Of a DNA stretch of 64,000 bases, positions 36,259 through 57,527 are shown in pieces. Source of the DNA: an uncultured Solirubrobacteraceae bacterium (GTDB taxonomy: Bacteria > Actinomycetota > Thermoleophilia > Solirubrobacterales > Solirubrobacteraceae); contig CADCVQ010000160.1 of assembly GCA_902806175.1 (NCBI GenBank), positions 1 through 64,000 on the forward strand. Direction: 5' to 3'. Position 1 is the stretch's first letter. Every line of letters begins with the position of its first letter. The notes under the pieces were generated by a model, which saw only the letters and a program-made list of their open reading frames with translations, had not been told where the DNA came from and ran no database searches. The translations under genes were made by a program, and so were the position numbers.

Positions 36259-38229
36259 ATGCCCGCGCCGAAGACCGCGAAACCACCGCCGCGCCGCGCG
36301 AGCCCCGTGGCGCCGCCGCCGCCCCGCATCCAGATCGGCCGGCCGGCCCCGATGATCGACTGCGGCCGCTATCCCTCCAAGCGGACCGTCGGCGATGCCG
36401 TCCAAGTCAGCGCCGACATCTTCGCCGACGGACACGACGTGCTGCGCGCGGTCGTCCGCTCCTGCGCCCCCGGCTCCAAGCGCTGGGTCGAGAACCCGAT
36501 GGCCCGCACCGACGCGCACATCGACGGCGACCGCTGGGCGGGCCGGTTCCAGGTCGACGTCCTGGGCCGCCACGCGTGGACGATCGAGGCGTGGACGGAC
36601 GCCTTTGCGAGCTGGCGCGAGGAGCTGCGACGCAAGATCGACGCCGGCCAGGAGAACCTGTCGGGTGAGCTGTCGGAGGGCGAGGTGCTGCTCGCGCAGG
36701 CCGCCGGGCGCGCCAAGGGCCCCGACCGCAAGCTCATCGAGCGCGCGCTCGCGTCCCTGCGCGACGACGGCGCCAACCCGCAGATCGCGCTGGACCCCGA
36801 GCTCTTCGCGGCGATCGCGCGCGTTCCCGACCGCAGCCGCTCGACGACGATGGTCCCCACGCTGTACGTCGACGTCGACCCGGTCAAGGCCCGCTTCGGC
36901 ACGTGGTATGAGCTCTTTCCGCGCTCCTGGGGCGGCTTTACCGGCGTCAGCGAGCAGCTTCCCGAGCTCGCGCGGCTGGGCTTTGACGTGCTGTACCTGC
37001 CGCCGGTGCACCCGATCGGCATGACGAACCGCAAGGGCGCCAACAACAGCCTCGAGGCCGGCGCCGGCGATCCCGGCTCGCCCTGGGCGATCGGCGACGC
37101 GACCGGCGGCCACGACGCCCCGCATCCCGAGCTCGGGACGATGGAGGACTTCGACACGATGGTGCGCGTCGCCCGCGAGGAGGGCATCGACATCGCGCTG
37201 GACTTCGCGATCCAGTGCTCCGCCGATCATCCCTGGCTGACCGAGCACCCGGAGTGGTTCAACCGCCGCCCCGACGGGACGCTGAAGTACGCCGAGAACC
37301 CGCCCAAGAAGTACCAGGACATCTACAACGTCAACTTTGACTGCGAGGACTGGCAGGGCCTGTGGAACGCGCTGCGCGACGTGCTGCGCTTCTGGGCCGG
37401 CCACGGCGTCAAGGTCTTTCGCGTCGACAACCCGCACACGAAGCCGCTGGCGTTCTGGGAGTGGGTCATCGGCGAGCTGCGCTCAGAGCACCCGGAGATC
37501 ATCTTCCTGGCGGAGGCCTTCACCCGCGCGGCGATGATGCGCCAGCTCGCGAAGGTCGGCTTCAACCAGTCCTACACGTACTTCACGTGGAAGAGCTCCA
37601 AGTGGGAGCTGATGGACTACGTCACCGAGCTCGCCACGAGCGGCATGCAGGAGTACTACCGGCCCAACTTCTTCGTCAACACGCCCGACATCCTCACCGA
37701 GGAGCTGCAGCACGGCGGGCCGCCGAAGTTCGCCAGCCGGCTCGTGCTCGGCGCGACCCTGAGCCCGACCTACGGCGTCTACTCGGGCTTTGAGAACTTC
37801 GAGCGCGTGGCGGTGCGTCCGGGCAGCGAGGAGTACGAGAACTCCGAGAAGTACGAGATCAAGAAGCGCACGCTCAACGGGCCGCTGCTGTCGCTGATCG
37901 AGCGCATCAACACGATCCGCAACGAGAACGAGGCGCTGCAGCACCTCGACAACATCCAGTTCCTCACGACGGAGAACGACGCGCTGATCGCCTACGCCAA
38001 GCGCACCGGCGACAACATCATCATCGTCGTGGTCACGCTGGACCCGGTCAGCGCGCAGGAGGGGATCGTCGTCATTCCCTACGGCCTCGGGCTGCCGCCC
38101 GTCTTCACCGTCACCGACCTGCTGTCGAACGAGAGCTTCGACGACTGGCGGATGGGACGAAACTTCGTGCGGCTGGACCCGTACCGCGTCGCGCATCTGC
38201 TGCGCGTGAGCACGAGCACGCCCTCGTGA
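36259..38229 (+). CDS. glgE: Alpha-1,4-glucan:maltose-1-phosphate maltosyltransferase
   Basis: A 656-residue GH13 subfamily 3 enzyme that extends alpha-1,4-glucan with maltose-1-phosphate. The N-terminal beta domain ([13 protein letters not shown]) and helical insertion are followed by a TIM barrel with [36 protein letters not shown] (nucleophile Asp) and [10 protein letters not shown] (acid/base Glu). The first 30 residues are Pro/Arg-rich. It heads a compact glgE-treS-mak-glgB operon with overlapping genes. Confidence 0.96.
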
Positions 38230-39896
38230 TGCAGCCGGCCGGGCAGTGGTTCGAATCAGATCCGCTCTGGTTCAAGACGGCGATCTTCTATGAGATCCAC
38301 CTGCGCGGCTTCTTCGACGGCACGGGCGACGGACACGGCGACTTCCGCGGCCTGAGCGACAAGCTCGACTACCTGCAGTGGCTCGGCGTCGACGTCATCT
38401 GGCTGCTGCCGATGTACCCCTCGCCGCTGCGCGACGGCGGCTATGACATCGCCGACTTCTACGGCGTGCATCCCGACTACGGGACGATGGACGACGTGCG
38501 GTCGTTCATCGAGGCCTCGCACGAGCGCGGCATCCGGGTGATCGCCGATCTCGTCATGAACCACACGTCCAATGACTGCGAGTGGTTTCAGGAGGCGCGC
38601 TCGAGTCCCGACAACCCCAAGCGCGACTGGTATGTCTGGAGTGACGACTCGACCCGCTACAGCGAGGCGCGGATCATCTTCGTCGACACGCAGACCTCCA
38701 ACTGGACATGGGACGAGAAGGCCGGCGCCTACTACTGGCATCGCTTCTTTCACCACCAGCCCGACCTCAACTACGACAACCCCGAGGTCCGCGAGGCGAT
38801 GCTCGACGTCCTGCGCTTCTGGCTGGACGCCGGCCTGGACGGGTTTCGCCTGGACGCCGTGCCCTACCTCTACGAGCGCGACGGCACGAACTGCGAGAAC
38901 CTCGACGAGACGCACGCGTTCCTCAAGGTCGTGCGCAGGACCGTCGACGACGAGTATCCCGACCGGGTCCTGCTCGCCGAGGCCAACCAGTGGCCGGCCG
39001 ACGTCGTGCAGTACTTCGGCGACGGCGACGAGTGCCACATGGCCTTTCACTTCCCGGTCATGCCGCGCATGTTCATGGCGCTGCGCCGCGAGGAGGCCAC
39101 GCCGATCCTCGAGATCCTCTCCCAGACGCCGCACATCCCATCCAACTGCCAGTGGGGCCTGTTCCTGCGCAACCACGACGAGCTCACGCTCGAGATGGTC
39201 ACCGACGAGGAACGCGACTACATGTACTCCGAGTACGCCAAGGACCCGCGGATGAAGCTCAACGTCGGCATCCGCAGGCGCCTCGCGCCGCTGATGGACG
39301 GCGGCCGCGACGAGATCGAGCTGCTGCACGCGATGCTCTTCAGCCTGCCGGGCTCGCCGGTCCTCTACTACGGCGACGAGATCGCGATGGGCGACAACGT
39401 CTACCTCGGCGACCGCGACGGGGTACGTACCCCCATGCAATGGACCGGCGACCGCAACGGCGGCTTCTCACGGGCGGACTTCGCGCAGCTCTACGCGCCG
39501 CCGCTGATGGATCCCGTCTACGGCTATCAGGCCGTCAACGTCGAGGCCCAGCTGCGCACGCCCTCGTCGCTGCTGCGCTGGCTGCGGCGCTTCATCGCGC
39601 TGCGCAAGGAGCACCCCGTGTTCGGCCTCGGAAGCTTCGAGGCGCTGACGCCGGCCAACCCGAAGATCTTTGCCTGCGTCCGCACCTACGAGGACGATGT
39701 CGTGCTGTGCGTGCACAACGTCGCGCGCTCGGCGCAGGCGGTCGAGCTCGACCTGTCCTGGTACACGGGGCGCCGTCCGGTCGAGCTGTTCGGACGCTCG
39801 CGCTTTCCGAAAATCGGCGAGTTGCCGTATCTGCTGACCCTCGCTCCGCGCGGGTTCTTCTGGTTTGGGCTGGAGGAGGACGATGAGCCTGCCTGA
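38226..39896 (+). CDS. treS: Trehalose synthase (maltose alpha-D-glucosyltransferase)
   Basis: A 556-residue GH13 enzyme that interconverts trehalose and maltose. The N-terminal [52 protein letters not shown] (nucleophile), LLAEANQWP (acid/base) and [13 protein letters not shown] are diagnostic. The GTG start overlaps the glgE stop (an ATG lies at 38229). Maltose made here is phosphorylated by the next gene product. Confidence 0.96.
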
Positions 39897-41151
39897 CCGC
39901 ATCGACGGCCCGCTCGCGGCGTGGGTGATGAGACAGCGCTGGTTTGCCTCCAAGGCACGCGCGGTCGCCGCCGTCAACGTGCTCGAGCGCGTGCAGCTCA
40001 GCGAGGACCCGCCGCTGGCCCTCGAGCTCGTCGAGGCCCGCTTCCATTCCGGCACGCACGAGCTCTACCAGCTGCTTCCCGGCGAGGGCGAGGCGGGCGT
40101 GCGCATACTCGCGCGGCTGCTCGGCGACGAGGCACAGATCGCCGGCGTCAGCTTCCACGGCGGACTCGAGCCGACCGGCGACGTGCGCGCGATGGGAGCC
40201 GAGCAGTCCAACTCGTCGATCGTCTTCGGAGAGCAGCAGGTGCTCAAGCTCTTTCGCCGCGTCGAGCCGGGCGTCAACCCCGAGCTCGAGATGCTGCGCT
40301 TCCTGTCGGCGCGCGGCTTCGAAGCCGTCGCGAAGCTCACCGGCTGGTACGACATCTCCGGCGAGCTCATGCAGGCGACGCTCGGGATCATGCAGGAGTT
40401 CGTCCCCGACGCCCACGACGGCTGGCAGCGCGCGCTCGACGACCCGATCGGGGTGCTGGCGCGTCTGCCCGAGCTCGGCGCTGCGACCGGCCAGATGCAC
40501 AGCGTGCTGGCGTCAGATCCGACGGACTCGGCATTCGCGCCCGAGGAGCCGAGCACCGAGGCGCTGTCGCTGCTGACGGCGACGATCGACGAGCAGATCG
40601 AGCAGGTCTTCCTCGACCTGCGGCCGGGGACGCCGGGCCTCGAGCCGATCCTCGGGCGCGGCGAGGAGGTCCGCGACCGCCTGCAGCTCATGTCGCACGT
40701 GGGCGTCGGCGGACGGCTGATCCGCCATCACGGCGACTACCACCTCGGCCAGACCATGTTGGGCGACAAGGGCTGGACGATCCTCGACTTCGAGGGCGAG
40801 CCGGCGCGCTCGCTGCTGGACCGCCGCCGCAAGCGCTCGCCGCTGCGCGACGTCGCGGGGATGCTGCGCTCGTTTGCCTACGCCGCATCGGCGGCGGAGC
40901 TGCTGCGCGGCGCGCCGGCGCCCGCCGGGTGGGAGGAGCAGGCGCGCGAGGGGTTCCTGGAGGCCTACCTGGAGACGGTCGACCAGTCGCTGCTGCCCGC
41001 CGGGCGCCCTGCGACCGACAAGCTGCTTGCGATCTTCGAGCTCGAGAAGGCGGTCTACGAGCTGCGCTACGAGCTCAACAACAGGCCCGGTTGGGTGCCG
41101 ATACCGGTGGCGGGCATCGCCCGGCTGCTGCAAGAGGAGGTCCCCACATGA
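39883..41151 (+). CDS. mak: Maltokinase
   Basis: A 422-residue kinase giving maltose-1-phosphate for GlgE. The N-terminal [13 protein letters not shown] cap, the aminoglycoside-phosphotransferase-like catalytic [12 protein letters not shown] and metal-binding [12 protein letters not shown], and the [17 protein letters not shown]-terminus are typical. In many genomes Mak is fused to TreS; here it is free but overlaps treS by 14 nt, with GGAGGAGG as ribosome site inside treS. Confidence 0.95.
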
Positions 41152-43391
41152 GCGCTTCGCCCGTGAGCACCGCCGACCGCGATCGGCTCGTCGCCCGCGA
41201 TCACCACGATCCGCACGCGATCCTCGGCGCGCACGAGTCCGATGGCAGCGTGATCATCCGTGCGCTGCATCCGTCCGCCGCGGCGGTCGTCGTGCAGCCC
41301 GAGGGCATCGAGCTGCAGCGCGTGCATCCCGGGGGCCTGTTCGAGGGTGAGATCCCAAGCGCGTCGATCGGGGCGGGCGGCGCGTCGTTCTCCTACGAGC
41401 TCGAGGTCCGCTACCCCGACGGCGCCACCTGGACGACGCAGGACCCCTACCGCTTCGCGCCGACCCTCTCCGACCTCGACGAGCACCTGTTTCGCGAGGG
41501 CCGACACGAGCAGCTGTGGTCGAAGATGGGCGCGCACGTGCGCGAGATCGACGGCGTCCGGGGCTCGTCGTTCGCCGTGTGGGCGCCGGCGGCGCGCTCG
41601 GTCTCCGTCGTCGGCGACTTCAACTTCTGGGACGGGCGCCTGCACATGATGCGCACGCTCGGCGGCTCGGGGATCTGGGAGCTGTTCGTGCCGGTCGTCG
41701 GCGACGGCGCGCGTTACAAGTTCGAGATCCGCACGCAGTCCGGCGAGCTGCTGCTGAAGGCCGATCCCTTCGCGTTCGCGACCGAGCTGCCGCCGCAGAC
41801 GTCCTCGATCGTGCACGAGTCCACATACGAGTGGAAGGACGCCGAGTACCTCGCGGCGCGCGCGTCGGGGACGCCGCACGAGCGCCCGATGTCGGTCTAC
41901 GAGGTGCACCTCGGCTCGTGGCGCCGAAACCCGCTGGAGGACAACCGCTCGCTGACGTACGTCGAGCTGGCCGGCGAGCTGGCGGCGTACGTGTCCGATC
42001 TCGGCTTCACGCACGTCGAGCTGCTGCCGGTCATGGCGCACCCGTTCAGCGGCTCCTGGGGCTACCAGGTGACGTCCTACTACGCGCCCACGCCGACCTT
42101 CGGCGGGCCCGACGACTTCCGCGCCTTCGTCGACCGCTTGCACGAGAGCGGGATCGGCGTGCTGCTGGACTGGGTCCCGGCGCACTTCCCGCGCGACGAC
42201 TGGGCGCTCGCGCGCTTCGACGGCACCGCGCTGTACGAGCACGAGGATCCGCGTCGCGGCGCGCACCCCGACTGGGGCACGCTCGTCTTCAACTACGGCC
42301 GCAACGAGGTGCGCAACTTCCTCGTCGCCAACGCGCTGTTCTGGGCACGCGAGTTCCACGCCGACGGCATCCGCGTCGACGCGGTCGCGTCGATGCTGTA
42401 CCTGGACTACTCGCGCAAGGAGGGCGAGTGGGTTCCCAACCAGTTCGGCGGGCGCGAGGATCTCGAGGCGGTCGCCTTTCTCAAGGAGCTCAACGAGGTC
42501 CTGCACCGCGACGAGCCCGGCGTCGTCAGCGCCGCCGAGGAGTCGACGGCGTGGCCGGGCGTCTCGCGGCCGACGTACCTCGGCGGGCTGGGCTTCGGCT
42601 TCAAGTGGAACATGGGCTGGATGCACGACACGCTGGCCTACTTCCAGCAGGACCCGATCCACCGCCGCTACCACCACCACGAGCTGACGTTCTCGATGGT
42701 CTACGCGTTCACGGAGAACTTCATCCTGCCGCTGTCGCACGACGAGGTCGTCCACGGCAAGGGCTCGCTGATCGACAAGATGCCCGGCGACCCCTGGCAG
42801 AAGCTCGCCAACCTGCGCTGCCTGTACGCCTACATGTGGGCGCATCCCGGCAAGAAGCTGCTCTTCATGGGACAGGAGTTCGCCCAGGCGCAGGAGTGGA
42901 GCCACGAACGGTCGTTGGACTGGCACCTGCTCGAGCAGGGCGAGAACTCCGGCATCCAGGCGCTCGTGCGCGACCTCAACCGCGTCTACCGCGCCACGCC
43001 GGCGCTGTTCGAGGTCGACTTCGACGGCAGCGGCTTCTACTGGATCGAGCCCAACGACGCCGACGCCAACGTCGTCGCCTTCGCGCGCGCCGGGCAGGAT
43101 GCTGCCGGCGAGGTGCTCGTCTGCGTCGCGAACCTCTCGCCGGTGCCGCGACCGGGCTACCGGCTCGGGCTGCCGCGCGCGGGCCGCTGGGTCGAGGCGC
43201 TGAACACCGACTCGGCCTTCTACGGCGGCACGGACAGCGGCAACCTCGGCGGCGTGGACTCCGAGTCGCTGCCGTGGCACGGCCAGCCCTGCTCGGCCGA
43301 CGTGTCGCTGCCGCCGATGGGCGTGGTCTGGCTCGTGCCGGAGCAGCGCCCGGCGCCGGCCCGCGCCGGCGCCGGCACCCCGCGCTCCTAA
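41148..43391 (+). CDS. glgB: 1,4-alpha-glucan branching enzyme
   Basis: A 747-residue GH13 branching enzyme with two N-terminal CBM48-type domains (DHHDPHAILGAHE and SSFAVWAPAARSVSVVGDFN), then EVHLGSWRR, GIRVDAVASMLYLDYSR (nucleophile Asp), SAAEESTAWPGVS (acid/base Glu) and PLSHDEVVHGKGSL. It introduces alpha-1,6 branches into the GlgE product. ATGA overlap with mak. Four nucleotides separate its stop from the convergent SpoIIE gene. Confidence 0.97.
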   Translation: MSASPVSTADRDRLVARDHHDPHAILGAHESDGSVIIRALHPSAAAVVVQPEGIELQRVHPGGLFEGEIPSASIGAGGASFSYELEVRYPDGATWTTQDPYRFAPTLSDLDEHLFREGRHEQLWSKMGAHVREIDGVRGSSFAVWAPAARSVSVVGDFNFWDGRLHMMRTLGGSGIWELFVPVVGDGARYKFEIRTQSGELLLKADPFAFATELPPQTSSIVHESTYEWKDAEYLAARASGTPHERPMSVYEVHLGSWRRNPLEDNRSLTYVELAGELAAYVSDLGFTHVELLPVMAHPFSGSWGYQVTSYYAPTPTFGGPDDFRAFVDRLHESGIGVLLDWVPAHFPRDDWALARFDGTALYEHEDPRRGAHPDWGTLVFNYGRNEVRNFLVANALFWAREFHADGIRVDAVASMLYLDYSRKEGEWVPNQFGGREDLEAVAFLKELNEVLHRDEPGVVSAAEESTAWPGVSRPTYLGGLGFGFKWNMGWMHDTLAYFQQDPIHRRYHHHELTFSMVYAFTENFILPLSHDEVVHGKGSLIDKMPGDPWQKLANLRCLYAYMWAHPGKKLLFMGQEFAQAQEWSHERSLDWHLLEQGENSGIQALVRDLNRVYRATPALFEVDFDGSGFYWIEPNDADANVVAFARAGQDAAGEVLVCVANLSPVPRPGYRLGLPRAGRWVEALNTDSAFYGGTDSGNLGGVDSESLPWHGQPCSADVSLPPMGVVWLVPEQRPAPARAGAGTPRS

Positions 43392-43395
43392 GAGC

Positions 43396-44847
43396 TCATT
43401 CGATCGCCAGGACGGCGACGGTGCCGTCGTCCTCCAGCGGCTCGCGCCAGCAGTCGGTCACCGCCTGCAGCACCGCCATCGCGGTCGCGGCCGCGGTCGG
43501 GTGCTCGAGGCCCGCGATCGCCTTCGCGATGCCGTCGGAGCCAAAGCGCCCGCCGCCCTCCATGCGCCGCCCGGTGATGCCGTCGGTGACGAGGATGATG
43601 CGCTCGTCGGAGTGCAGCACGCGCTGCGTGGCCGTGAACTGCAACTCCCGCTCGCCACCGCCGCCGAGCGGCGGGTGATGCGGGCTCTGCAGCTCGATGA
43701 GGTTGCCGTCGATGTCGGCGAGGTAGGGCGGCGCATGGCCGCAGTTGACCCACGTCAGCGTCTGCGTCGCCGCCCGCCAGCGCGCGGCGAGCACGCTGAC
43801 GTGGAACTCCGGGTTGCCGAGCTGGCAGACCGTCTCGTGCATCGTCGCCAGCGCCTGCTCGAGCGTGTGGCCGCTGCGGCGGGCCGCGCGCAGGGCGCCC
43901 AGCGCGGACGCGCCGAGGCCCGCGGCGGTCGGGCCGGTGCCGACGGTGTCGGCGATCGCGATCCACGCGCCGTCGCGGTTGTCGACGAAGTCAAACCAGT
44001 CGCCGCCGACGTCGTAGCTGGGCAGCAGCCCGCCGGCGAGCTGCGCGCCCTGGATGCGCACGACCCGCGGCGGAAAGAGGTTCTGCTGGATCTCCGCGGC
44101 CGGCGTGGTCGGCTTGCGGCGCCGCGCGGCCTCGATGTGATCGGTGTAGTCGTTGGCGAGCTCGAGCGCGGCGGCGCCCTGCTTGGCGATGTCGTCCAGC
44201 GGCGCCATCGGCGTGCCCATGCACAGCAGCAGACCGGTGACGCGGCCGCGCAGCCAGAGCGGCTCGCAGTAGCAGCCGGGAAGGCGCTGGCGCAACCGAT
44301 CGACGTACGCGGGCATGCCCTCGGGAACGATCTCGGGGCCGAGCGCGGGCGGCTCGGGCAGCGCGTCGGGAAACTCCTCCGAGCCGGCGAGACGCAACAG
44401 CTGCGAGCCGTCGATGTCGACGATGTACAGCGCGACCGCGACGCCGCCCGCGCGGCGCGCCTCGGCGACGAGCTGGTCGGGGACGAGGTGCGGGGGCACC
44501 TCGTCGAGGATGTGCGTCACCTCGAGCGCGAGCGGGCGGTCGCGGCCCAGCTGGCCCGGCGCGCGGAACGGCAGCGTCGCCACGCGCCCGGTCGGAACCG
44601 ACTGCCCAACGTCATCGTGCGCCTCGAGCGCACGCTGCAGAACCTCGCGCGTCGCGAAGTGGCGGTAGAGGGTCGACCGCCCGACCCCCGCGGCGGCGGC
44701 GATCTCGCCCATGCTGACGCGCCGGTCGCCGCGCAGCGCCTGGGCCGCGGCGAGGATGCGCTCGCGGCTGGCGACCGCGTCAGCGCGCAGCGCGCCGGCC
44801 GCCTCTGGCGGCGCGCTCTCCTCGCGGTCTGGGGCGGGCTGATTCAT
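43396..44847 (-). CDS. TetR-type HTH fused to a SpoIIE/PP2C phosphatase
   Basis: A 483-residue fusion. Residues 25-75 are a TetR-like HTH (RERILAAAQALRGDRRVSMG, GVGRSTLYRHF); residues 90-240 look like a GAF-type sensor; residues 270-483 are a SpoIIE/PP2C domain (GGDWFDFVD, IAIADTVGTGPTAAGLGA, LTWVNCGHAPPYL, ITDG-type VTDGITGRR, DDGTVAVLAIE). A DNA-binding head on an anti-sigma-antagonist-type phosphatase is uncommon. Start ATG at 44847 has TACGGT 9 nt upstream. Confidence 0.85.
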   Translation of the reverse strand: MNQPAPDREESAPPEAAGALRADAVASRERILAAAQALRGDRRVSMGEIAAAAGVGRSTLYRHFATREVLQRALEAHDDVGQSVPTGRVATLPFRAPGQLGRDRPLALEVTHILDEVPPHLVPDQLVAEARRAGGVAVALYIVDIDGSQLLRLAGSEEFPDALPEPPALGPEIVPEGMPAYVDRLRQRLPGCYCEPLWLRGRVTGLLLCMGTPMAPLDDIAKQGAAALELANDYTDHIEAARRRKPTTPAAEIQQNLFPPRVVRIQGAQLAGGLLPSYDVGGDWFDFVDNRDGAWIAIADTVGTGPTAAGLGASALGALRAARRSGHTLEQALATMHETVCQLGNPEFHVSVLAARWRAATQTLTWVNCGHAPPYLADIDGNLIELQSPHHPPLGGGGERELQFTATQRVLHSDERIILVTDGITGRRMEGGGRFGSDGIAKAIAGLEHPTAAATAMAVLQAVTDCWREPLEDDGTVAVLAIE

Positions 44848-44856
44848 CGCGCCGTC

Positions 44857-44862
44857 ACCGTA
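44857..44862 (-). promoter_or_regulatory. -10 box (TACGGT) for the TetR-SpoIIE gene
   Basis: On the minus strand TACGGT ends 9 nt before the ATG at 44847. Confidence 0.4.
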
Positions 44863-45041
44863 GCGGCCGCGTTTGCAGGCATAGTCCGCCTCGTATGTGT
44901 CCCGCCTTGTCCCATAGAAGCATCCGGGGCGTTTTCCCCGCCAGCCGCTGGATGCACGCGACAACGCTGGTCCATCGGTCCAGATCCGAGCGTTTACGCG
45001 CCAACAGCGGGAACCTCGCGGAGGCGGAACCCTGCGCGGGG

Positions 45042-48632: not shown

Positions 48633-49832
48633 GTGAGCGGCGGCCGTTCATCCGGCGGACGGCCGTGCGCGGCCCTGTTGCTGCTGGGCATCTGGTCGCT
48701 TGCCCTCGCGGCCCATCCTCTTGCGGCGGCGCGTGCATCCGGCGACGGGCGCGCCGCGCCGGCGACCGTCAAGGCACCGAACGATCCGCTGTTCGGGCAG
48801 CAGTGGAACCTGCGCGCGATCCAGATCCCCGCCGCGTGGGCGGTCTCGCGCGGTCGCGGCGCGACGGTGGCCGTCCTGGACACGGGGGTCGCCTACGCGA
48901 CGCGTGGCCCATACCGGCGCGCACCGGACCTCGCCGGGACGCGTTTCGTCGCGGGCTGGGACTTCGTCGACGACGATCCCCATCCTCATGACGTCGCTCC
49001 CCGCGACGGGCGCCGCAGCCACGGAACGCAGATGGCGGCGATCATCGCCCAGACCGCAGACAACGCGCTCGGCGGCGCCGGCGTCGCGCCGGCCGCTGCG
49101 ATCATGCCGGTCCGCGTGCTCAGGCCGGACCTGAGCGGGACGGTGACAGCCGTCGCGCGCGGCCTGCGCTTCGCCGCCGACCACGGCGCCGACGTCGTCA
49201 ACCTGAGCTTCGAGGGTCTCTCGCAGTCGCGCCCGGTGACAGCGGCGGTCGCCTACGCGACGGCCAAGGGCGTGACCGTCGTCGCGGCGTCGGGCAACGG
49301 CGGGCGAGCGTCGGTCAGCTGGCCGGCCGCAGATCCGAAGGTCGTCGCGGTGGGCGCCGTGGCCCGCGATCTCACGCGCGCGCCGTACTCCAACTACGGC
49401 GCGGCGCTCGACCTCGTGGCGCCCGCCGGCGCGGGCGCCGACACCGACACCGGCAACGGCCCGGCGGACGGGGTGGTGGCGCAGACGCTGAAGGGTGGGC
49501 CGTCGCAGTTCTGCTTCTGCTCTACCGCCTCGACGTCGGCGGCGACCGCCCGCGTCGCCGGCCTGGCCGCCCTCGTCGTCGGTGCGGGACGAGCGCGCGG
49601 GCCCGCCGCGGTGCGCGCAGCGCTGCTGCGCAGCGCGCGTGACCTGGGGCCCGACGGGCGCGACCCCCAGTACGGGGCCGGCCTGGTGCAGGCGGCACGC
49701 GCCGTCGGCGTCACGGGTGGCGAAGCGGCCGGCGGCTCGGACGCGCGGCCGGTGGCGCTCGCGGGCGCGGCGCTCGTGGCCGTGGCCACGCTCGTGCTCG
49801 TGACGAGGAGGCGCCGGCGCCGCGCAAGCTGA
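48633..49832 (+). CDS. Membrane-anchored subtilisin-like (S8) protease, copy 1
   Basis: A 399-residue secreted serine protease: signal peptide (1-33), catalytic Asp83 (AVLDTG), His130 (SHGTQ), oxyanion Asn222 (ASGNGG) and Ser302 (ASTSAATA, with Ser replacing the usual Gly of GTS). A Cys pair (Cys294, Cys296) precedes the serine. The C-terminus is a transmembrane helix followed by RRRRRRAS, so the enzyme faces outwards, a mycosin-like layout, without a long pro-domain. It shares a 94-nt identical block with the copy at 56262. Confidence 0.92.
   Translation: MSGGRSSGGRPCAALLLLGIWSLALAAHPLAAARASGDGRAAPATVKAPNDPLFGQQWNLRAIQIPAAWAVSRGRGATVAVLDTGVAYATRGPYRRAPDLAGTRFVAGWDFVDDDPHPHDVAPRDGRRSHGTQMAAIIAQTADNALGGAGVAPAAAIMPVRVLRPDLSGTVTAVARGLRFAADHGADVVNLSFEGLSQSRPVTAAVAYATAKGVTVVAASGNGGRASVSWPAADPKVVAVGAVARDLTRAPYSNYGAALDLVAPAGAGADTDTGNGPADGVVAQTLKGGPSQFCFCSTASTSAATARVAGLAALVVGAGRARGPAAVRAALLRSARDLGPDGRDPQYGAGLVQAARAVGVTGGEAAGGSDARPVALAGAALVAVATLVLVTRRRRRRAS
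48945..49038 (+). repeat. Direct repeat, copy 1 (identical 94 nt)
   Basis: Identical base for base to 56601-56694, including synonymous sites, within two otherwise diverged subtilase genes in the same orientation. Indicates recent duplication or gene conversion. Confidence 0.85.
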
Positions 49833-50359: not shown

Positions 50360-51805
50360 ATGCCCCGCCGCCGGACCGCATCGTCGCCCACCCGCTCGCG
50401 GCTGCTCGTCGCCGCCGCGGCGGCGCTGCTCGGCGGCCTCGTCCTGCCCGCCAGCGGCCACGCGATCGCGCTGAACTGCCTCGTCCCCGCCGGCGCGCGG
50501 GCGAGCGCCGGCTCGCAGGCGCCGCTGCGCTTCGGGATCTTTCCCGGCGGCCCCGCCGGCTCCGTCAACGCGAAGGCTGCGCCGCGCGCCGAGGACCCGG
50601 CCAAGCGGCTGTCGGCCCTGCAGTCGCTGGCGGGCTCCAGCCCGTTCGTCGTGCGCCTCTACGACAGCTGGACGGGAACCTCGGCCGACGACGACGGCGG
50701 CTGGCTCGATCGTCAGATCGCCGGCTACACCTCAACAGGGCTGCAGGTCGAGCTCGTCGTGCGCTACACGCCCGCCGCGGCTGACACCGGGTCCGCGCCG
50801 GCGGCGTTCGCCGAGCACGTCCGCGCAATCGCCGGCCGCTACGGACCGGACCCGCGCTTCGTATCACTGCAGGTCACCAACGAGGCCAACCTCCCCGGCC
50901 AGCCCGACGCATCCGACGGCGCGTTCGCCGGCGTCGCCGACGCGGTCGTCAAGGGCGTCATCGCCGCCAAGGACCAGGTCCGCAAGGGCAACCACGGGCA
51001 GTTGCGGATCGGCTTCAGCTGGGCCTACGACGAGCGTCCGCTGCTCAGCACCGAGTTCTGGGCGACGCTTGGCCGCATCGGCGGACGCGCGTTCGCCGAC
51101 AGCGTCGATTGGGTCGGCCTCGACTCCTACCCCGGCACGTGGGCTCCGCAGCTCGCACTGTCCAACCTCCTGCCCGGCCAGGCCGCCGGCGCGGTGAAGG
51201 AGAGCGTTCGCTCGCTGCGCGACTGCCTCATGCCGATGGCGGGGCTCGGCAGCGGCACGACGATCCACATCGCCGAGAACGGCTTTCCGACGGGGCCGGG
51301 TCGCTCGGAGGAGATGCAGGCGCAGGTGCTCGACGCGATGGTCCGCAGCGTCAACTCGATCCGCGCCACGTACGGGGTCAGCGACTACCGCTGGTTTGAC
51401 CTGCGCGACAGCTCCACGGCGGATCCGAGCATCGAGAGCCAGTACGGCATCACCCGCGACGACTACTCGCCCAAGCCGGCCTTCGCGACGTACCGCGACC
51501 TGATCGGCAACCACGGCGCCGGCGCCACGACGTCGACGGCCACCGCGACCGCGGACGCCGCAAACTGCACGCGCTCGCCGGTCAAGGTCGTCGTGCCGCG
51601 GGTGAAGAAGAGCAGGCGCCTGTCGTCGCTCGTCGTGCACGTCGGCAACAAGGTCGTCAAGCGCGTGAAGCGATCGACGATGCCGCGCAGCGTGCGCATC
51701 AGCTTGCGCGCCGGCCGCGCCGCCGTGAAGGTCAAGCTCACGTCGCAATTCGACGGCAAGCGTCGCACCCGCGTCCAGCGCCGCACCTACCGGGTCTGCG
51801 GATGA
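50360..51805 (+). CDS. Secreted clan GH-A-type glycoside hydrolase
   Basis: A 481-residue exported protein: signal peptide (1-36), a TIM-barrel-like domain with VTNEANLPGQP (Asn-Glu acid/base motif) and IHIAENGFPTG (nucleophile Glu), and a basic C-terminal beta domain (VKVVVPRVKKSRRLSSLVV) typical of local surface proteins. The substrate is probably a beta-linked polysaccharide. Its stop overlaps the GT2-GH26 fusion start (ATGA), so both are made together. Confidence 0.82.
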   Translation: MPRRRTASSPTRSRLLVAAAAALLGGLVLPASGHAIALNCLVPAGARASAGSQAPLRFGIFPGGPAGSVNAKAAPRAEDPAKRLSALQSLAGSSPFVVRLYDSWTGTSADDDGGWLDRQIAGYTSTGLQVELVVRYTPAAADTGSAPAAFAEHVRAIAGRYGPDPRFVSLQVTNEANLPGQPDASDGAFAGVADAVVKGVIAAKDQVRKGNHGQLRIGFSWAYDERPLLSTEFWATLGRIGGRAFADSVDWVGLDSYPGTWAPQLALSNLLPGQAAGAVKESVRSLRDCLMPMAGLGSGTTIHIAENGFPTGPGRSEEMQAQVLDAMVRSVNSIRATYGVSDYRWFDLRDSSTADPSIESQYGITRDDYSPKPAFATYRDLIGNHGAGATTSTATATADAANCTRSPVKVVVPRVKKSRRLSSLVVHVGNKVVKRVKRSTMPRSVRISLRAGRAAVKVKLTSQFDGKRRTRVQRRTYRVCG

Positions 51806-54585
51806 CGCCGCTCGTCGAGTTTCGCGCCGGCGACGGTGCGCGCGTGGACATGCCGGGCGTCGGGGTCGAGGCGGGTCCGCGCAACGACCCGCCTGGCTTC
51901 TCGCCCCGCCGGCGCTGGCGGCGGCGCTACCGGCACAACCGCCATCTGCGTGACCTGCTGTCGGTTTCGCAGCGCCTGACGCTGTCGGGCCTGATCCTCG
52001 CTTGGGCGCTGGCGACCATCTGGTCGGCGCGCTGGTGGCTGGAGCCACAGCACTGGACGTCGATGACCGGGCTCGTGCTCAACTCGGTGCCGCTCGCGGT
52101 CGAGCTCATCTTCATGCCGCTGTATCTGTACACGTGGCTGTGGCGGATGAAGCGGCCCAACCCGGACCTCGAGGTACCGCACCTGCGCACGGCGATGATC
52201 GTGACGAAGGCGCCCAGCGAGCCCTGGCCGGTCGTGCGCGAAACGCTGCAGGCAATGCTCGCCCAGGACTTCCCCCATCGCTACGACGTCTGGCTCGCCG
52301 ACGAGCGCGTCGCGCCCGAGACCAGCGCCTGGTGCAAGGAGCACGGGGTGCGGATCTCGACGCGCGAGAGCATCGCGGCCTACCACCAGCCCTCGTGGCC
52401 GCGCAGAACGCGCTGCAAGGAGGGCAACCTCGCGTTCTTCTATGACATCTGGGGCTATCGCCTCTACGACGTGGTGGCACAGCTCGACGCCGACCACGTG
52501 CCGGCACCCTCCTACCTGCGTCAGATGGTCACGCCGTTCGTCGACGAGCTCGTCGGCTACGTCGCCGCCCCGAGCATCTGCGACCGAAACGCCGACCGCT
52601 CGTGGTCCGCGCGCGGGCGCCTCTTCTACGAGGCCGTCCTGCACGGGCCGATGCAGGCGGGCCACAGCGGCGGCTTCGCACCGAGCTGCATCGGCTCGCA
52701 CTACGCGGTGCGGACGGCGGCGCTGAAGCAGATCGGCGGCATCGGCCCCGAGCTGGCCGAGGACTTCACGACGACGCTCATGATGAGCTCGCATGGCTGG
52801 CAGGGTGTCTTCGCGATCGACGCCGAGGCCCACGGCGACGGGCCCGCGTGTCTGGAGGACTGCCTGACTCAGGAGTTTCAGTGGTCGCGCAGCATGATGA
52901 ACGTCATGCTCGGCGTCAACGGCGCCTACTGGGCCGGGCTGAGCGTGCGCGCGAAGCTGCGCCTCGGCTTCTGCCAGGTCTGGTATCCGCTCTTCGGCGT
53001 CCTCATGCTGCTGTCGATCGTGCTGCCGCTCGGCGCCGTCCTGACGCAGACGCCGCTCATGCACGTCGGCCTCGGCGACTTCTACCGGCACATCCTGCCG
53101 GCGCTGCTCGTGCTCATCGCGACGGTGTTCTGGCTGCGCTCGCTGGAGTGGCTGCGCCCGCGCACGGCGCGGGCGGTCTCCTGGGAGGCGGTGCTGTTTC
53201 AGCTCATCCGCTGGCCGTGGGTGCTGCTGGGCTGTGTGCATGCGGTCGTCGGCCGGATCGCCGGGCGCGAGTTCAGCTTCAAGGTCACGCCGAAGGGCCG
53301 CTCGGGCGTCTTGCCCCTTCCTACGCGGGTCGTCATGCCCTACCTCGTCATCGCCGTCGTCTCCGCGCTCCCGACGCTGCTGGACCTCGACGCCGGCGCG
53401 GCGGCGGGATACCGGATGCTCGCGCTGCTCAACGCCGGGCTGTATCTCACGGCGGCGATCGCGATCGTCGCACTGCACGTCCGCGAGCATCCGCGCGGCA
53501 CGCGCCGCGTCGTCCTGCGGTCGATCGCGTCCAAGGCAGTCGCGACGGGCGCGTGCGCGTCGTTCATGCTGGTCGGGCTGGGGCTGCAGGGCTTCGGCGG
53601 GCAGGGCGCCCAGTCGGCGATCGCGAGCGCGCCGTTCGTCAGCGCTCCGCTCGCCCCGGGCATTCCGGAGCTCGGCGTGTCGACGCCGTCGCTGGCGAAG
53701 AACCCGGTGGTGCCCTGGCGTCCGGACGACCTCGCCGAGGTCAATGCGTTCGAGCAGATGAGCCAGGCGCACGTCGGGATCGTCCAGTGGTTCGCCGACT
53801 GGCGCCACTCGGGTGTCGACGTCGAACAGTTGCGCGCGGTCGCGGCCCGCGGAAGCACGCCGCAGATCACGTGGGAGCCGTGGGACAGCCTCGGCAGCAC
53901 CGTGCAGTCCAAGTACACCCTGAAGTCGATCATCCGCGGGCGCCACGACGCCTACATCCGCTCGTGGGCGCGCGCACTGGCCCGCTACGGAGGCCCCGTG
54001 CAGCTGCGGTTCGCGCAGGAGATGAACGGCTACGTCTACCCCTGGGTCGAGGGCCTGAACGGAAACCGCGCCGGCGAGTTCGCCCGTGCCTGGCGCCACG
54101 CGCACGACATCTTCACCGCCGAGGGCGCGACGAACGTCCGGTGGGTGTGGGCCCCGGTGACCGGTGGCGTACACCGCGGCCAGTACCCGGGCGACCGCTA
54201 CGTCGACATCGTCGGGCTGTCGGGCTTCAACGGCGGCAGCGAGCTGAACTGGAGCGGATGGCGGACGTTCGCCGACGCGTTCGAGGCCCCGATGCAGGAG
54301 TTGCGCCGCGTCGCACCGGGCAAGCCCGTCCAGATCAGCGAGGTCGCGACCGCGAAGGAGGGCGGCAGCAAGCCGCTGTGGATCAAGGAGATGTTCGACT
54401 ACGTGCTGGCGCACCCTTACATCAAGGCGGTGCTCTGGTTTGACCTGCCCAAGCAGACCGACTGGCGCGTGGCCACGTCGCCGGCCGCCGAGCGCGCCTT
54501 CGCCGAGGGCGTCGCGCGCATGCAGGGCGCCACCACGCCCATCCGGGTGCCCGCGCCGGCGCTGGCGTCACGGCCTCCGGGGTAG
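51802..54585 (+). CDS. Membrane GT2 (cellulose-synthase-like) fused to a GH26-type glycosidase
   Basis: A 927-residue polypeptide. After a basic tail come two N-terminal membrane segments, then a cytosolic GT2 domain (about 130-370) with DxD at Asp229/Asp231, Glu320-Asp321 and QEFQW at 357-361 (Gln where QxxRW has Arg). Six C-terminal membrane segments follow (about 390-610). Residues 613-915 are an extracytoplasmic GH26-like domain with acid/base Glu740 (AQEMNGYVYPW) and nucleophile Glu847 (QISEVATA). Polymerase and hydrolase are on opposite membrane faces of one chain, suggesting synthesis coupled to trimming. Confidence 0.88.
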   Translation: MTPLVEFRAGDGARVDMPGVGVEAGPRNDPPGFSPRRRWRRRYRHNRHLRDLLSVSQRLTLSGLILAWALATIWSARWWLEPQHWTSMTGLVLNSVPLAVELIFMPLYLYTWLWRMKRPNPDLEVPHLRTAMIVTKAPSEPWPVVRETLQAMLAQDFPHRYDVWLADERVAPETSAWCKEHGVRISTRESIAAYHQPSWPRRTRCKEGNLAFFYDIWGYRLYDVVAQLDADHVPAPSYLRQMVTPFVDELVGYVAAPSICDRNADRSWSARGRLFYEAVLHGPMQAGHSGGFAPSCIGSHYAVRTAALKQIGGIGPELAEDFTTTLMMSSHGWQGVFAIDAEAHGDGPACLEDCLTQEFQWSRSMMNVMLGVNGAYWAGLSVRAKLRLGFCQVWYPLFGVLMLLSIVLPLGAVLTQTPLMHVGLGDFYRHILPALLVLIATVFWLRSLEWLRPRTARAVSWEAVLFQLIRWPWVLLGCVHAVVGRIAGREFSFKVTPKGRSGVLPLPTRVVMPYLVIAVVSALPTLLDLDAGAAAGYRMLALLNAGLYLTAAIAIVALHVREHPRGTRRVVLRSIASKAVATGACASFMLVGLGLQGFGGQGAQSAIASAPFVSAPLAPGIPELGVSTPSLAKNPVVPWRPDDLAEVNAFEQMSQAHVGIVQWFADWRHSGVDVEQLRAVAARGSTPQITWEPWDSLGSTVQSKYTLKSIIRGRHDAYIRSWARALARYGGPVQLRFAQEMNGYVYPWVEGLNGNRAGEFARAWRHAHDIFTAEGATNVRWVWAPVTGGVHRGQYPGDRYVDIVGLSGFNGGSELNWSGWRTFADAFEAPMQELRRVAPGKPVQISEVATAKEGGSKPLWIKEMFDYVLAHPYIKAVLWFDLPKQTDWRVATSPAAERAFAEGVARMQGATTPIRVPAPALASRPPG

Positions 54586-54858
54586 GAGTTTCGGCGAATC
54601 TTTGCGTCGCGCACGCTGGTCGCCGGGTGGCCGAGGGGCGCGAGCTTCTGACCCGTCGCGCGTGCCGTGCGCCGTCCGGCGAGGACGACGTGGGGGGCGC
54701 TCGTGCCAGGAGGGCGGGCAGCCGGTGTACTCGTGGCTCGCGGCTCCAAGTGGACAAGCGGGCGCTCGTGTGGTCAGCTACACGCTGCGCTGTCACCGGG
54801 AGATCGTGTTCCGTCGCCCCCGTGGGAGCGCCCTGCGATTCGCTATGACGGCATCGAC

Positions 54859-56217
54859 ATGAACTGGACCCGCGCTCTTCTGGTCGCGTGCGCACTTGCG
54901 CTCGCGTTCCCCGTGAGCGCGCAGGCGCAGACGCGGACGATCGAAGGCCAGCCGTCGCCGAGCCCGCGCATGCTGTCGATCTTCGTCGGCGACACCGGCT
55001 CGCTGCAGGCCAAGCGCGGGGTGCCTTTCGTGGGACAGCCCGGTCAGGACCAGCCGGTGTTCGGCATGTTCTTCGGCAGCAGCACCGCCCCGGCGGCGAA
55101 CTTCTGGCACCTGCGTGTCAAGGGAGCACCGGCCGCCAACCTGACGTTCGGTCCGCGCGACGCACCGGTGACGACGATCTCCAACGGGCCGGTGCTGGGT
55201 GACTGGACGGCTGCGTCACCGGCCCGCGTCGACACGCTCATGCGCCTCCGACACAACGGCGCCGACCTCTTCGAGGTCAAGCAGACGGTCCTGTACGTCG
55301 CGTCCGAGCTGCGCTACCGCGTCATCTGGGACATCCGCAACGTGACCGCACAGGCGATCCCGTTCATCTTCGGGACCTCCGCGGACCTCTTCATCGAGAG
55401 CGACGCGGGCGAAGGCGTGTTCATCGACGGCCCGACCCGCTTCATCGGTGGGCGAAACAAGTTCTCCGGAACGGTCGGGGGCATCGAGCAGGTGACCTCC
55501 TCACAGCTGCCCGGTGAGGCCGCCACGACCCCGGTCGCGCCGTGGGCGAGCTACGAGGAGGGCGACCCGTTCCCCGTGACGCGCCGTCTGAGCGGCCAGG
55601 ACGCGTTCCTCAACACGATCAACCCGGTCTTCATGGACAACGGCGTCGGCGTGAGCTTCGACGACCGCGCAACGACCGGCCTTGCGGCCGGCCAGACCGC
55701 CCGCTACGAGGTCCTCTGGCATGTGTCACGGCCCACGACCTTGAGCGCGGCGGCGACGGTGACGAGCGCCGGGCCGCCCGACTCGCGCGACGAGCAGCCG
55801 CCGCCCCCGACCGCCGCCGACAACGCTCGGGGCAGCGGCAGCGGCAGCGGCAGCGGCAGCGCTTCCGCGGCGACGGCCGGCGGCGCCGCGGACACCGCCG
55901 CGCCGGCCCTCAGCGCGCTGAGGCTGGCGCCCACCGCACTCAGGTCCGCCTCCGCGCGGGCGAGGACCGCTCCGAAGATCGTGTTCCGGCTCAGCGAACC
56001 GGCCGGGGTCGTGCTGCGGATCGTCCGCCGGACCGCCGGACGCCGCGTGACCGTTCGCAAGCTGACGCGCGCGAACCTCCCGGCCGGCTCCAACGCAGTC
56101 CCTATCGCAGGCAAGCGCCTGGCCGCCGGCGCATACGTCGTGACCGCGCGCCCGATCGACGCCGCGGGCAACGCGGGCAGACAGCGGTCGGCAGCGTTCC
56201 GGATCACCACTCGCTGA
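54859..56217 (+). CDS. Secreted protein with GS linker and C-terminal beta-sandwich
   Basis: A 452-residue exported protein: signal peptide MNWTRALLVACALALAFPVS, a 310-residue beta-rich domain of unknown family (RYRVIWDIRNVTAQAIPF), a GSGSGSGSGS linker (about residues 328-338) and a C-terminal Ig-like module (IVFRLSEPAGVVLRIVRR, AGAYVVTARPIDAAGN). The latter module recurs in the 1060-aa protein downstream. ATG 54859 has no clear ribosome site. Likely surface-bound partner of the polysaccharide genes. Confidence 0.7.
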   Translation: MNWTRALLVACALALAFPVSAQAQTRTIEGQPSPSPRMLSIFVGDTGSLQAKRGVPFVGQPGQDQPVFGMFFGSSTAPAANFWHLRVKGAPAANLTFGPRDAPVTTISNGPVLGDWTAASPARVDTLMRLRHNGADLFEVKQTVLYVASELRYRVIWDIRNVTAQAIPFIFGTSADLFIESDAGEGVFIDGPTRFIGGRNKFSGTVGGIEQVTSSQLPGEAATTPVAPWASYEEGDPFPVTRRLSGQDAFLNTINPVFMDNGVGVSFDDRATTGLAAGQTARYEVLWHVSRPTTLSAAATVTSAGPPDSRDEQPPPPTAADNARGSGSGSGSGSASAATAGGAADTAAPALSALRLAPTALRSASARARTAPKIVFRLSEPAGVVLRIVRRTAGRRVTVRKLTRANLPAGSNAVPIAGKRLAAGAYVVTARPIDAAGNAGRQRSAAFRITTR

Positions 56218-56261: not shown

Positions 56262-57527
56262 GTGCTCTGCGGCCGCGTGAGCAGGGTTCGTTCATCCGCC
56301 CTCGGGCGGCGCGCGGTCCTGTGCGTCCTGGTCAGCTCGTCGCTCGCGCTCGCTGCCCGGCCGGTTGCGGCAGCGCAGGCGGCGAGCACGCCCCGCGACG
56401 GCGCTCGGGCGGCGGCGGCGACCGTCCAGCCGCCGAACGACCCGCTGTTTCGCCACCAGTGGTACCTGCGCGCGATCCAGATCCCCGCTGCGTGGGCCGC
56501 TTCGCGCGGTGAGGGCGCGACGGTGGCCGTCCTCGACACGGGGGTCGCCTACGCGACGCGTGGTCCGTACCGCCGCGCACCGGACCTCGCCGGGACGCGG
56601 TTCGTCGCGGGCTGGGACTTCGTCGACGACGATCCCCATCCTCATGACGTCGCTCCCCGCGACGGGCGCCGCAGCCACGGAACGCAGATGGCGGGGATCA
56701 TCGCGCAGACCACGAACAACGCGATCGGTGGCGCCGGCGTCGCACCGGCAGCTGCGATCATGCCGATCCGCGTGCTCCGGCCGAACCTGAGCGGGACAGC
56801 GACAGCCATCGCGCGCGGCCTGCGCTACGCCGCCGACCACGGCGCCGACATCGTCAACCTGAGCGTCGCGGGTCGCTCGCAGACGCGGCTCGTCAGAGAC
56901 GCGGTCGCCTACGCGACGGCCAAGGGCGTGACCGTGGTGGCAGCGTCGGGCAACGACGGGCGTGCGTCGGTCAGCTGGCCGGCCGCAGATCCGAAGGTCG
57001 TCGCGGTGGGCGCGGTGGCCCGCGATCTGGTGCGCGCGCCGTACTCCAACTACGGCGAGGCGCTGGACCTCGTGGCTCCCGCCGGCGCGGGCGCTCTCGG
57101 TGACAGCGGCTACGGGCCGCCGGACGGAGTGGTGGCGCAGACCCTGAAGGGCGGTCCGTCTGAGTTCTGCTTCTGCTTCACCGCCTCGACGTCGGCGGCG
57201 GCGGCTCAGGTCTCCGGCGTGGCTGCGCTACTCGTCGCAACAGACCGGGCGCGAGGACCCGCCGCCGTGCGGGCGGCGTTGCTGCGCGGCACGCGCGACC
57301 TGGGCCCGGACGGGCGCGATCGCGAACACGGGGCCGGCATGGTGCAGGCGGCGCGTGCCCTTGGCGTCAGCGCTGGCGAACCGCAGACCGGCCCGAGCTC
57401 ACGACCGCGGACTCCGGCACCGGACGAGGGGGCGGACGTGCGGCCGGCGCTGCTCGTGGCCGCAGCTTTCGCGACCGGGCTCGCGCTCGCGCTCGCGAGC
57501 CGCAGGCGTCGCCGCCGCGCAGGCTGA
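56262..57527 (+). CDS. Membrane-anchored subtilisin-like (S8) protease, copy 2
   Basis: A 421-residue paralogue of the protease at 48633 with Asp92, His139, Asn231 and Ser311 in the same motifs, the Cys pair at 303 and 305, and a C-terminal membrane helix plus RRRRRRAG. The N- and C-terminal thirds are more diverged than the core. The start may be the GTG at 56262 or the in-frame GTG at 56277. The pair brackets the glycosidase/GT2 cassette in the same orientation. Confidence 0.92.
   Translation: MLCGRVSRVRSSALGRRAVLCVLVSSSLALAARPVAAAQAASTPRDGARAAAATVQPPNDPLFRHQWYLRAIQIPAAWAASRGEGATVAVLDTGVAYATRGPYRRAPDLAGTRFVAGWDFVDDDPHPHDVAPRDGRRSHGTQMAGIIAQTTNNAIGGAGVAPAAAIMPIRVLRPNLSGTATAIARGLRYAADHGADIVNLSVAGRSQTRLVRDAVAYATAKGVTVVAASGNDGRASVSWPAADPKVVAVGAVARDLVRAPYSNYGEALDLVAPAGAGALGDSGYGPPDGVVAQTLKGGPSEFCFCFTASTSAAAAQVSGVAALLVATDRARGPAAVRAALLRGTRDLGPDGRDREHGAGMVQAARALGVSAGEPQTGPSSRPRTPAPDEGADVRPALLVAAAFATGLALALASRRRRRRAG
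56601..56694 (+). repeat. Direct repeat, copy 2 (identical 94 nt)
   Basis: Partner of 48945-49038; recombination between the two would remove about 7.6 kb including the glycosidase and GT2-GH26 genes. Confidence 0.85.

What the first reader, a model, noticed from the sequence alone, without database searches (positions are those of the whole stretch)
51802..54585. One polypeptide combines a cellulose-synthase-like polymerase with an extracellular GH26-type glycosidase
The 927-aa protein has GT2 catalytic acids (Asp229/231, Glu320-Asp321) on the cytosolic side, six later membrane spans, and a C-terminal GH26-like domain with both catalytic glutamates (740, 847) on the outer side. Cellulose and mannan systems normally encode the trimming hydrolase separately. 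The QxxRW motif, which positions the acceptor, reads QEFQW. A translationally coupled secreted glycosidase precedes it. This could be a self-trimming exopolysaccharide synthase of undescribed product.
Basis: partly seen in the sequence, partly recalled or inferred. Interest (0 to 1): 0.8.

Follow-up and report, generated by a model that had tools for sequence, protein, structure and literature searches.

The report
Sugar-polymer synthase fused to glycan-cutting enzyme
A bacterium of the Solirubrobacterales makes one protein that both builds a sugar chain at the membrane and carries, on the outside, an enzyme able to cut such chains; the parts belong to a polysaccharide system already known from root-nodule bacteria, but here they are joined, the cutting half has been swapped for another kind, and its active site carries a signature seen only in cutters linked to such a synthase.

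Summary
ORF 51802-54585 is one intact 927-aa frame: a BcsA-like GT2 synthase plus a GH26 domain closest to lichenase CtLic26A, with all named catalytic residues present. The fusion is conserved in other Solirubrobacterales (62% and 47% identity), so it is not an assembly error. Topology puts GH26 outside: 7 spans plus one interface helix, positive-inside loops, signal peptides on unfused partners.

It is not an undescribed kind. The GT2 half belongs to a well-supported clade (100/100) with ApsS of the S. meliloti arabinose-containing-polysaccharide operon, which also encodes a GH26 (ApsE). Burkholderia has a fused ApsS-ApsE behind uxs-uxe-ugd; GH17-GT2 fusions are published. QEFQW is typical of the clade.

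New here: (1) partner exchange: the GH26 half groups with partners of another GT2 clade, not with ApsE (AU p 0.010); (2) all 18 GH26s linked to these synthases have [S/T]-x-F where none of 44 others do (mostly D-x-Y); (3) a conserved neighbour, an unassigned clan GH-A hydrolase.

Best reading: an ApsS-type processive synthase with a built-in extracytoplasmic editing or release glycosidase. Product unknown.

The parts
51802..54585 (+). Fused synthase-glycosidase, 927 aa (ApsS-type GT2 :: lichenase-like GH26)
52189..52890 (+). GT2 (GT-A) catalytic domain, residues 130-363, cytosolic
   Evidence: Pfam PF13641 E 3.6e-18; Foldseek to BcsA E 6e-19
52486..52494 (+). DxD motif D229-A-D231
   Evidence: alignment with BcsA and ApsS
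52759..52764 (+). (T/A)ED motif, E320-D321
   Evidence: alignment
52870..52884 (+). QxxRW equivalent, QEFQW 357-361; QE[F/L]QW in the whole ApsS clade sampled
53278..53298 (+). Gating-loop-like FKVTPKG 493-499, after interface helix 461-486
   Evidence: (aligned to BcsA FNVTAKG)
53527..53598 (+). Extra span (residues 576-599) beyond the BcsA set; carries the chain to the outside
   Evidence: preceded by RGTRRVVLR, followed by an uncharged linker
53668..54522 (+). GH26 domain, residues 623-907, extracytoplasmic
   Evidence: PDB 2bv9 E 1.2e-39; Foldseek to CtLic26A TM 0.87, rmsd 2.7
54019..54021 (+). E740, acid/base glutamate
   Evidence: invariant in 62 GH26 sequences
54220..54228 (+). S807-x-F809, replacing the GH26 consensus D-x-Y; [S/T]-x-F in all 18 GH26 linked to these synthases
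54340..54342 (+). E847, nucleophile glutamate
   Evidence: invariant in 62 GH26 sequences
50360..51805 (+). Coupled upstream gene (481 aa), secreted, unassigned clan GH-A hydrolase (N174-E175, E306); a homologue adjoins all nine assessable actinobacterial loci
   Evidence: no Pfam family

Best explanation
This is a processive, membrane-embedded polysaccharide synthase of the ApsS family with its own extracytoplasmic endo-glycosidase. The cytosolic GT2 domain elongates a chain from a nucleotide sugar and passes it through the BcsA-like channel (shown: homology, motifs, predicted fold; inferred: activity). An additional span carries a lichenase-like GH26 domain to the outer face, where the chain emerges (supported: topology by homology, charge pattern and signal peptides of unfused partners). 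There the GH26 cuts, releases or edits the nascent chain, helped by a co-encoded secreted clan GH-A hydrolase (inferred from fixed linkage and several fusions). The altered [S/T]-x-F subsite suggests a tuned, perhaps slow or transglycosylating, enzyme rather than a scavenging one (inferred). The sugar and linkage are unknown; a beta-glucan or a pentose-containing polymer as in S. meliloti APS are about equally likely.
For: GT2 in the ApsS clade, 100/100. All 17 examined members of the ApsS and sister QQ[F/Y]AW clades have a GH26 fused or in the same gene cluster; one of these, G383, is spread over two contigs. The GT2 and GH26 frames overlap in the unfused pairs of G009, G014, G398, Woesebacteria and Sulfitobacter. 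Fusions occur in Solirubrobacterales, in Burkholderia and, with another GT2, in G197. The structure model matches BcsA and CtLic26A. Loops assigned inside carry K/R (4 before the last span), loops assigned outside carry none. [S/T]-x-F is in 18/18 linked and 0/44 other GH26 sequences, with three changes of state on a tree built without those columns.
Against: No activity, product or structure has been measured. uxs and uxe, adjacent to apsS in proteobacteria, are not adjacent here; the own genome has a UDP-xylose-synthase homologue elsewhere, 56% identity. The GH26 half is not ApsE-type, so S. meliloti function transfers only in part. The third GH26 change of state (G197) rests on one long branch. 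Pairing was judged from the loci I fetched, not from a random sample; the own genome's second locus has a GH26 beside a different GT2 and keeps D-x-Y.
Confidence: 0.72

Rival explanations
1. Product reading A (a refinement of the best explanation): the chain is a mixed-linkage (1,3;1,4)-beta-glucan or related beta-glucan, and the GH26 is a lichenase that cuts it at linkage points.
For: GH26 is closest to CtLic26A, the lichenase of the family (35% identity), and has the lichenase-type WEPW at the place of the mannanase His region (PMC6556568, places lichenases in a branch apart from mannanases). The barrel of the neighbour resembles beta-1,3-glucanases GH157/GH158 among others.
Against: The GT2 is far from the bacterial mixed-linkage-glucan synthase BgsA (25% identity, the tree places BgsA with BcsA). 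The D-x-Y of CtLic26A is replaced, and the fold match of the neighbour is only at clan level.
Confidence: 0.35
2. Product reading B (a refinement of the best explanation): the chain contains pentose (xylose/arabinose) as in S. meliloti APS, with UDP-xylose and UDP-arabinose made elsewhere in the genome.
For: ApsS clade membership; in Sinorhizobium, Rhizobium, Phyllobacterium, Sulfitobacter and Burkholderia the gene follows uxs and uxe; S. meliloti APS contains arabinose (PMC7902896); a UDP-xylose-synthase homologue in the own genome; GH26 includes beta-1,3-xylanases.
Against: uxs/uxe are not linked in any actinobacterial locus fetched or in Woesebacteria; the GH26 partner is of another clade.
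Confidence: 0.3
3. The GH26 half does not work on the nascent chain; it is a scavenging or binding module that happens to be anchored to the synthase.
For: Unpaired secreted GH26 enzymes abound in the class, some in tandem arrays; two consensus subsite residues are replaced.
Against: Separate synthase linkages with the same replaced residues, both catalytic Glu kept in every copy, constant adjacency and overlapping frames.
Confidence: 0.12
4. The fusion is an assembly or sequencing artefact of two overlapping genes.
For: In relatives the two genes overlap by ATGA/GTGA, so a small indel could join them.
Against: Fused in independent genomes at 62% (L027), 47% (G143) and across the junction in G383; the fused forms lack the separate GH26 signal peptide.
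Confidence: 0.02

Closest known systems
S. [quoted passage not shown]
   Same: GT2 ApsS 50% identical, same clade and QEFQW; a GH26 (ApsE) encoded in the same operon, with the same [S/T]-x-F signature
   Different: Here one chain; GH26 of another clade (AU p 0.010); no adjacent uxs, uxe or DUF995 gene and no CuxR-like regulator noticed; a clan GH-A hydrolase instead
Burkholderia multivorans uxs-uxe-ugd-(ApsS::ApsE) locus
   Same: Single-chain GT2-GH26 fusion in the same order
   Different: GH26 half is ApsE-type (31% to this one); the GT2 and GH26 trees both place it away from the Solirubrobacterales fusions, so probably joined separately
Pseudomonas BcsA-like 'Orphan'/NdvB GH17-GT2 cyclic-beta-glucan synthases (PMC10237404)
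   Same: Extracytoplasmic GH and cytosolic GT2 in one membrane protein; the GH is proposed to process the chain
   Different: GH17 at the N-terminus, not GH26 at the C-terminus; GH17 is a beta-1,3-glucan transglycosylase
CtLic26A (Endoglucanase H GH26 domain)
   Same: Fold (TM 0.87), both catalytic Glu, WEPW
   Different: D-x-Y replaced by S-x-F; tethered to a synthase; H before the acid/base is Q
BcsA/BgsA synthases
   Same: GT2, DxD, ED, gating loop, channel fold
   Different: No PilZ or BgsA-type C-terminus; QxxRW Arg lost; about 25% identity; extra final span

Membership tests
Processive GT2 synthases (BcsA-like) | D, DxD, (T/A)ED and QxxRW | tested here: inconclusive
   D229/D231 and E320-D321 present; QxxRW reads QEFQW, as in the whole ApsS clade
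Processive GT2 synthases (BcsA-like) | Membrane channel and gating loop | tested here: met
   Foldseek to BcsA over about 560 columns; FKVTPKG aligned to BcsA FNVTAKG
Processive GT2 synthases (BcsA-like) | Polymerising activity | not testable with these tools
   needs assay
ApsS family | Monophyly with S. meliloti ApsS | tested here: met
   100/100 in two trees
APS operon | Neighbouring uxs1, uxe and DUF995 genes | tested here: not met
   none in the window or the actinobacterial loci; so filed as an ApsS-type synthase, not as an APS operon
APS operon | ApsE-type GH26 partner | tested here: not met
   GH26 tree and AU test p 0.010
GH26 | Two catalytic Glu on the clan GH-A barrel, Pfam above cut-off | tested here: met
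GH26 | HE motif before the acid/base (PMC6556568) | tested here: not met
   QE here, HE in L027; H and Q vary in the clade; the paper notes that xylanases and a branch of unknown function lack it, so it does not exclude membership
GH26 lichenases | Cleaves 1,3;1,4-beta-glucan | not testable with these tools
   needs assay
GH17-GT2 cyclic glucan synthases | GH17 domain | tested here: not met
   GH26, C-terminal
BgsA mixed-linkage-glucan synthases | Common clade with BgsA | tested here: not met
   BgsA branches with BcsA, 25% identity

The most novel reading that the evidence does not exclude
The synthase-linked GH26s form a recurrent functional class: enzymes recruited at least twice from ordinary GH26 glycanases and retuned at the +1/-1 subsites ([S/T]-x-F) into dedicated chain-editing, release or transglycosylating partners of GT2 synthases that have lost the QxxRW arginine, exchangeable between synthase clades and several times fused to them.
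Probability: 0.3. Interest if true: 0.72.

Novelty: new variant of a known kind. Interest (0 to 1): 0.52.

Why it matters
It ties a little-studied exopolysaccharide system (APS) to Actinomycetota and to a candidate-phylum bacterium. It shows that hydrolase and synthase belong together as a unit, and gives a testable residue signature that may distinguish glycosidases working in synthesis from those that degrade food. A single-chain synthase with tethered glycosidase is also a handy subject for asking how chain length and release are set.

Tried and rejected
Assembly artefact: rejected by independent fused homologues. The long antisense ORF (51787-54414, 875 aa): taken as a high-GC by-product, not pursued. 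QEFQW as a peculiarity of this protein: rejected, clade-wide. Beta-mannan system: GH26 far closer to CtLic26A than to mannanases. BgsA-type mixed-linkage-glucan synthase by descent: rejected by tree. GH26 always next to GT2 in the class: rejected, most of 20 further GH26 loci showed no close GT2 with the queries used. Family of the neighbour P0002: no Pfam or convincing PDB sequence match, clan GH-A by fold only. The primary papers on the APS operon (PNAS 2017, J Bacteriol 2019) were not held; operon order taken from PMC7902896. No paper on GT2-GH26 fusions was found in the held library.
Full report
WHAT IS THERE. Window 51802-54585 (+) is a single 927-aa frame. Pfam finds GT2 models at 130-363 and beyond and GH26 at 686-809, all above cut-off. 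The best PDB sequence match is the GH26 lichenase CtLic26A (2bv9, E 1.2e-39, 641-907); BcsA follows at 1.4e-10. An AlphaFold model (pLDDT 81, pTM 0.60) matches CtLic26A (TM 0.87, rmsd 2.7) and BcsA (E 6e-19) in Foldseek.

TOPOLOGY. The model has helices at 55-79, 88-115, 382-415, 424-447, 461-486, 508-526, 536-562 and 565-599. Helix 461-486 is the most amphipathic (maximum moment 0.39) and lies just before FKVTPKG, which aligns with the BcsA gating loop. I take it as an interface helix by analogy with BcsA (established knowledge of that fold). The loops then assigned inside carry 12, 26, 3, 4 and 4 K/R residues; those assigned outside carry none. GH26 is therefore outside. Unfused partners in L022, L029 and S. 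meliloti begin with signal-peptide-like sequences.

RELATIVES. In the same family, G009 and G014 encode the two halves as adjacent genes with overlapping stop and start. The fusion itself recurs in a Solirubrobacterales MAG (L027, 62%), in G143, in G395 (with a frame break in the GT2) and in G383, where one contig ends within the GT2 and another starts with its tail joined to GH26. G383 contig 123 is identical to a contig titled Solirubrobacteraceae, which places the window in that neighbourhood. A Woesebacteria contig (L029) holds an overlapping pair with 46% GT2 identity. ApsS-type genes are rare: 5 of 399 genomes of the class by my reading, and only the own genome among 396 of the phylum at E 1e-60.

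LINK TO APS. The plasmid search led to the S. meliloti pSymB cluster: AraC regulator, UDP-glucuronate decarboxylase, epimerase, GT2, DUF995, GH26, DUF995. [quoted passage not shown] The same order, with variations, is seen in R. leguminosarum, Phyllobacterium and Sulfitobacter. Burkholderia multivorans has uxs-uxe-ugd followed by a single 880-aa GT2-GH26 chain.

TREES. The ApsS clade is supported 100/100 and its sister is the clade with QQ[F/Y]AW. All other GT2s compared keep QxxRW except the G197 fusion (QRMLW). In the GH26 tree, partners of actinobacterial ApsS and of the QQ[F/Y]AW synthases form one clade (100/98); ApsE-type partners form another (100/99); forcing all ApsS partners together is rejected (p-AU 0.010). 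So the GH26 partner was exchanged. The direction of exchange is not determined.

ACTIVE-SITE SIGNATURE. In PMC6556568 the GH26 consensus has Asp at +1 and Tyr at -1 (D261 and Y263 of BoMan26B). At the matching positions (matched by motif to CtLic26A, not by aligning BoMan26B itself) all 18 linked GH26 sequences have S/T and F; of 44 others 31 have D/Y, 8 D/F, 5 another combination, none S/T with F. On a tree built without these columns the label changes three times. The set came from my own loci, and the pattern was noticed before it was counted, so an independent survey is needed. GH26s beside a different type of GT2 (own genome, L021; G033) keep D-x-Y and were counted as 'other'; had they been counted as linked, the association would be strong but not perfect. 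Both catalytic Glu are present in all 62.

NEIGHBOUR. The gene 50360-51805 overlaps the start of the fusion. It has no Pfam family. Ten homologues share N174-E175 and E306, at the ends of beta4 and beta7 of a barrel model; Foldseek matches are clan GH-A enzymes, among them PslG and GH157/GH158. A homologue adjoins all nine actinobacterial loci with enough flank, in varied orientation, and none of the proteobacterial ones.

MECHANISM AND LIMITS. Shown: domain content, conservation of the fusion, linkage, clade membership, signature. Inferred: that the chain leaves through the channel and meets the GH26; that GH26 edits, releases or transglycosylates; that the neighbour helps. The product is open: likeness to CtLic26A argues for beta-glucan, ApsS descent for a pentose-containing polymer. 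Precedent for the single-chain logic: GH17-GT2 proteins of Pseudomonas (PMC10237404).

VERDICT. Real, conserved and of moderate interest; a new variant of a known kind. The more surprising parts are the partner exchange and the residue signature, not the fusion that was flagged.

Noticed in passing
L021 (G000 contig 69) 6133-8805: Second GT2 + secreted GH26 pair in the own genome, with an unrelated GT2 (KQRRRW) and a GH26 that keeps D-x-Y; G033 (L099) has a similar GT2 beside its GH26 in opposite orientation.
   Followed up: partly
L068 5130-8495 (G197): Separate fusion of another GT2 (QRMLW) to a C-terminal GH26 with T-x-F, about 1120-aa frame; second GH26 downstream on the other strand.
   Followed up: partly
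L102, L103, L104, L105, L107, L109: Tandem arrays of three to four GH26 genes in one genus of the order; many lack the HE motif (WE instead).
   Followed up: no
L029 7983-10552: ApsS-ApsE-type overlapping pair in a Candidatus Woesebacteria contig, a candidate-phylum bacterium; suggests transfer between phyla.
   Followed up: partly
50360-51805: Unassigned clan GH-A hydrolase family, possibly a new glycoside hydrolase family tied to these synthases; the window copy has a basic C-terminal extension that relatives lack.
   Followed up: partly
54667-56217: Secreted protein of unknown family directly downstream; no homologue found beside the related loci.
   Followed up: no
48633-49832 and 56262-57527: Two mycosin-like subtilases flank the locus, both below the mycosin cut-off.
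   Followed up: no
43396-44964: Protein with a TetR-type DNA-binding match at the N-terminal side and a SpoIIE phosphatase domain at the C-terminus, an uncommon combination.
   Followed up: no
36259-43391: GlgE, trehalose-synthase-like amylase and GlgB in a row: alpha-glucan pathway.
   Followed up: no
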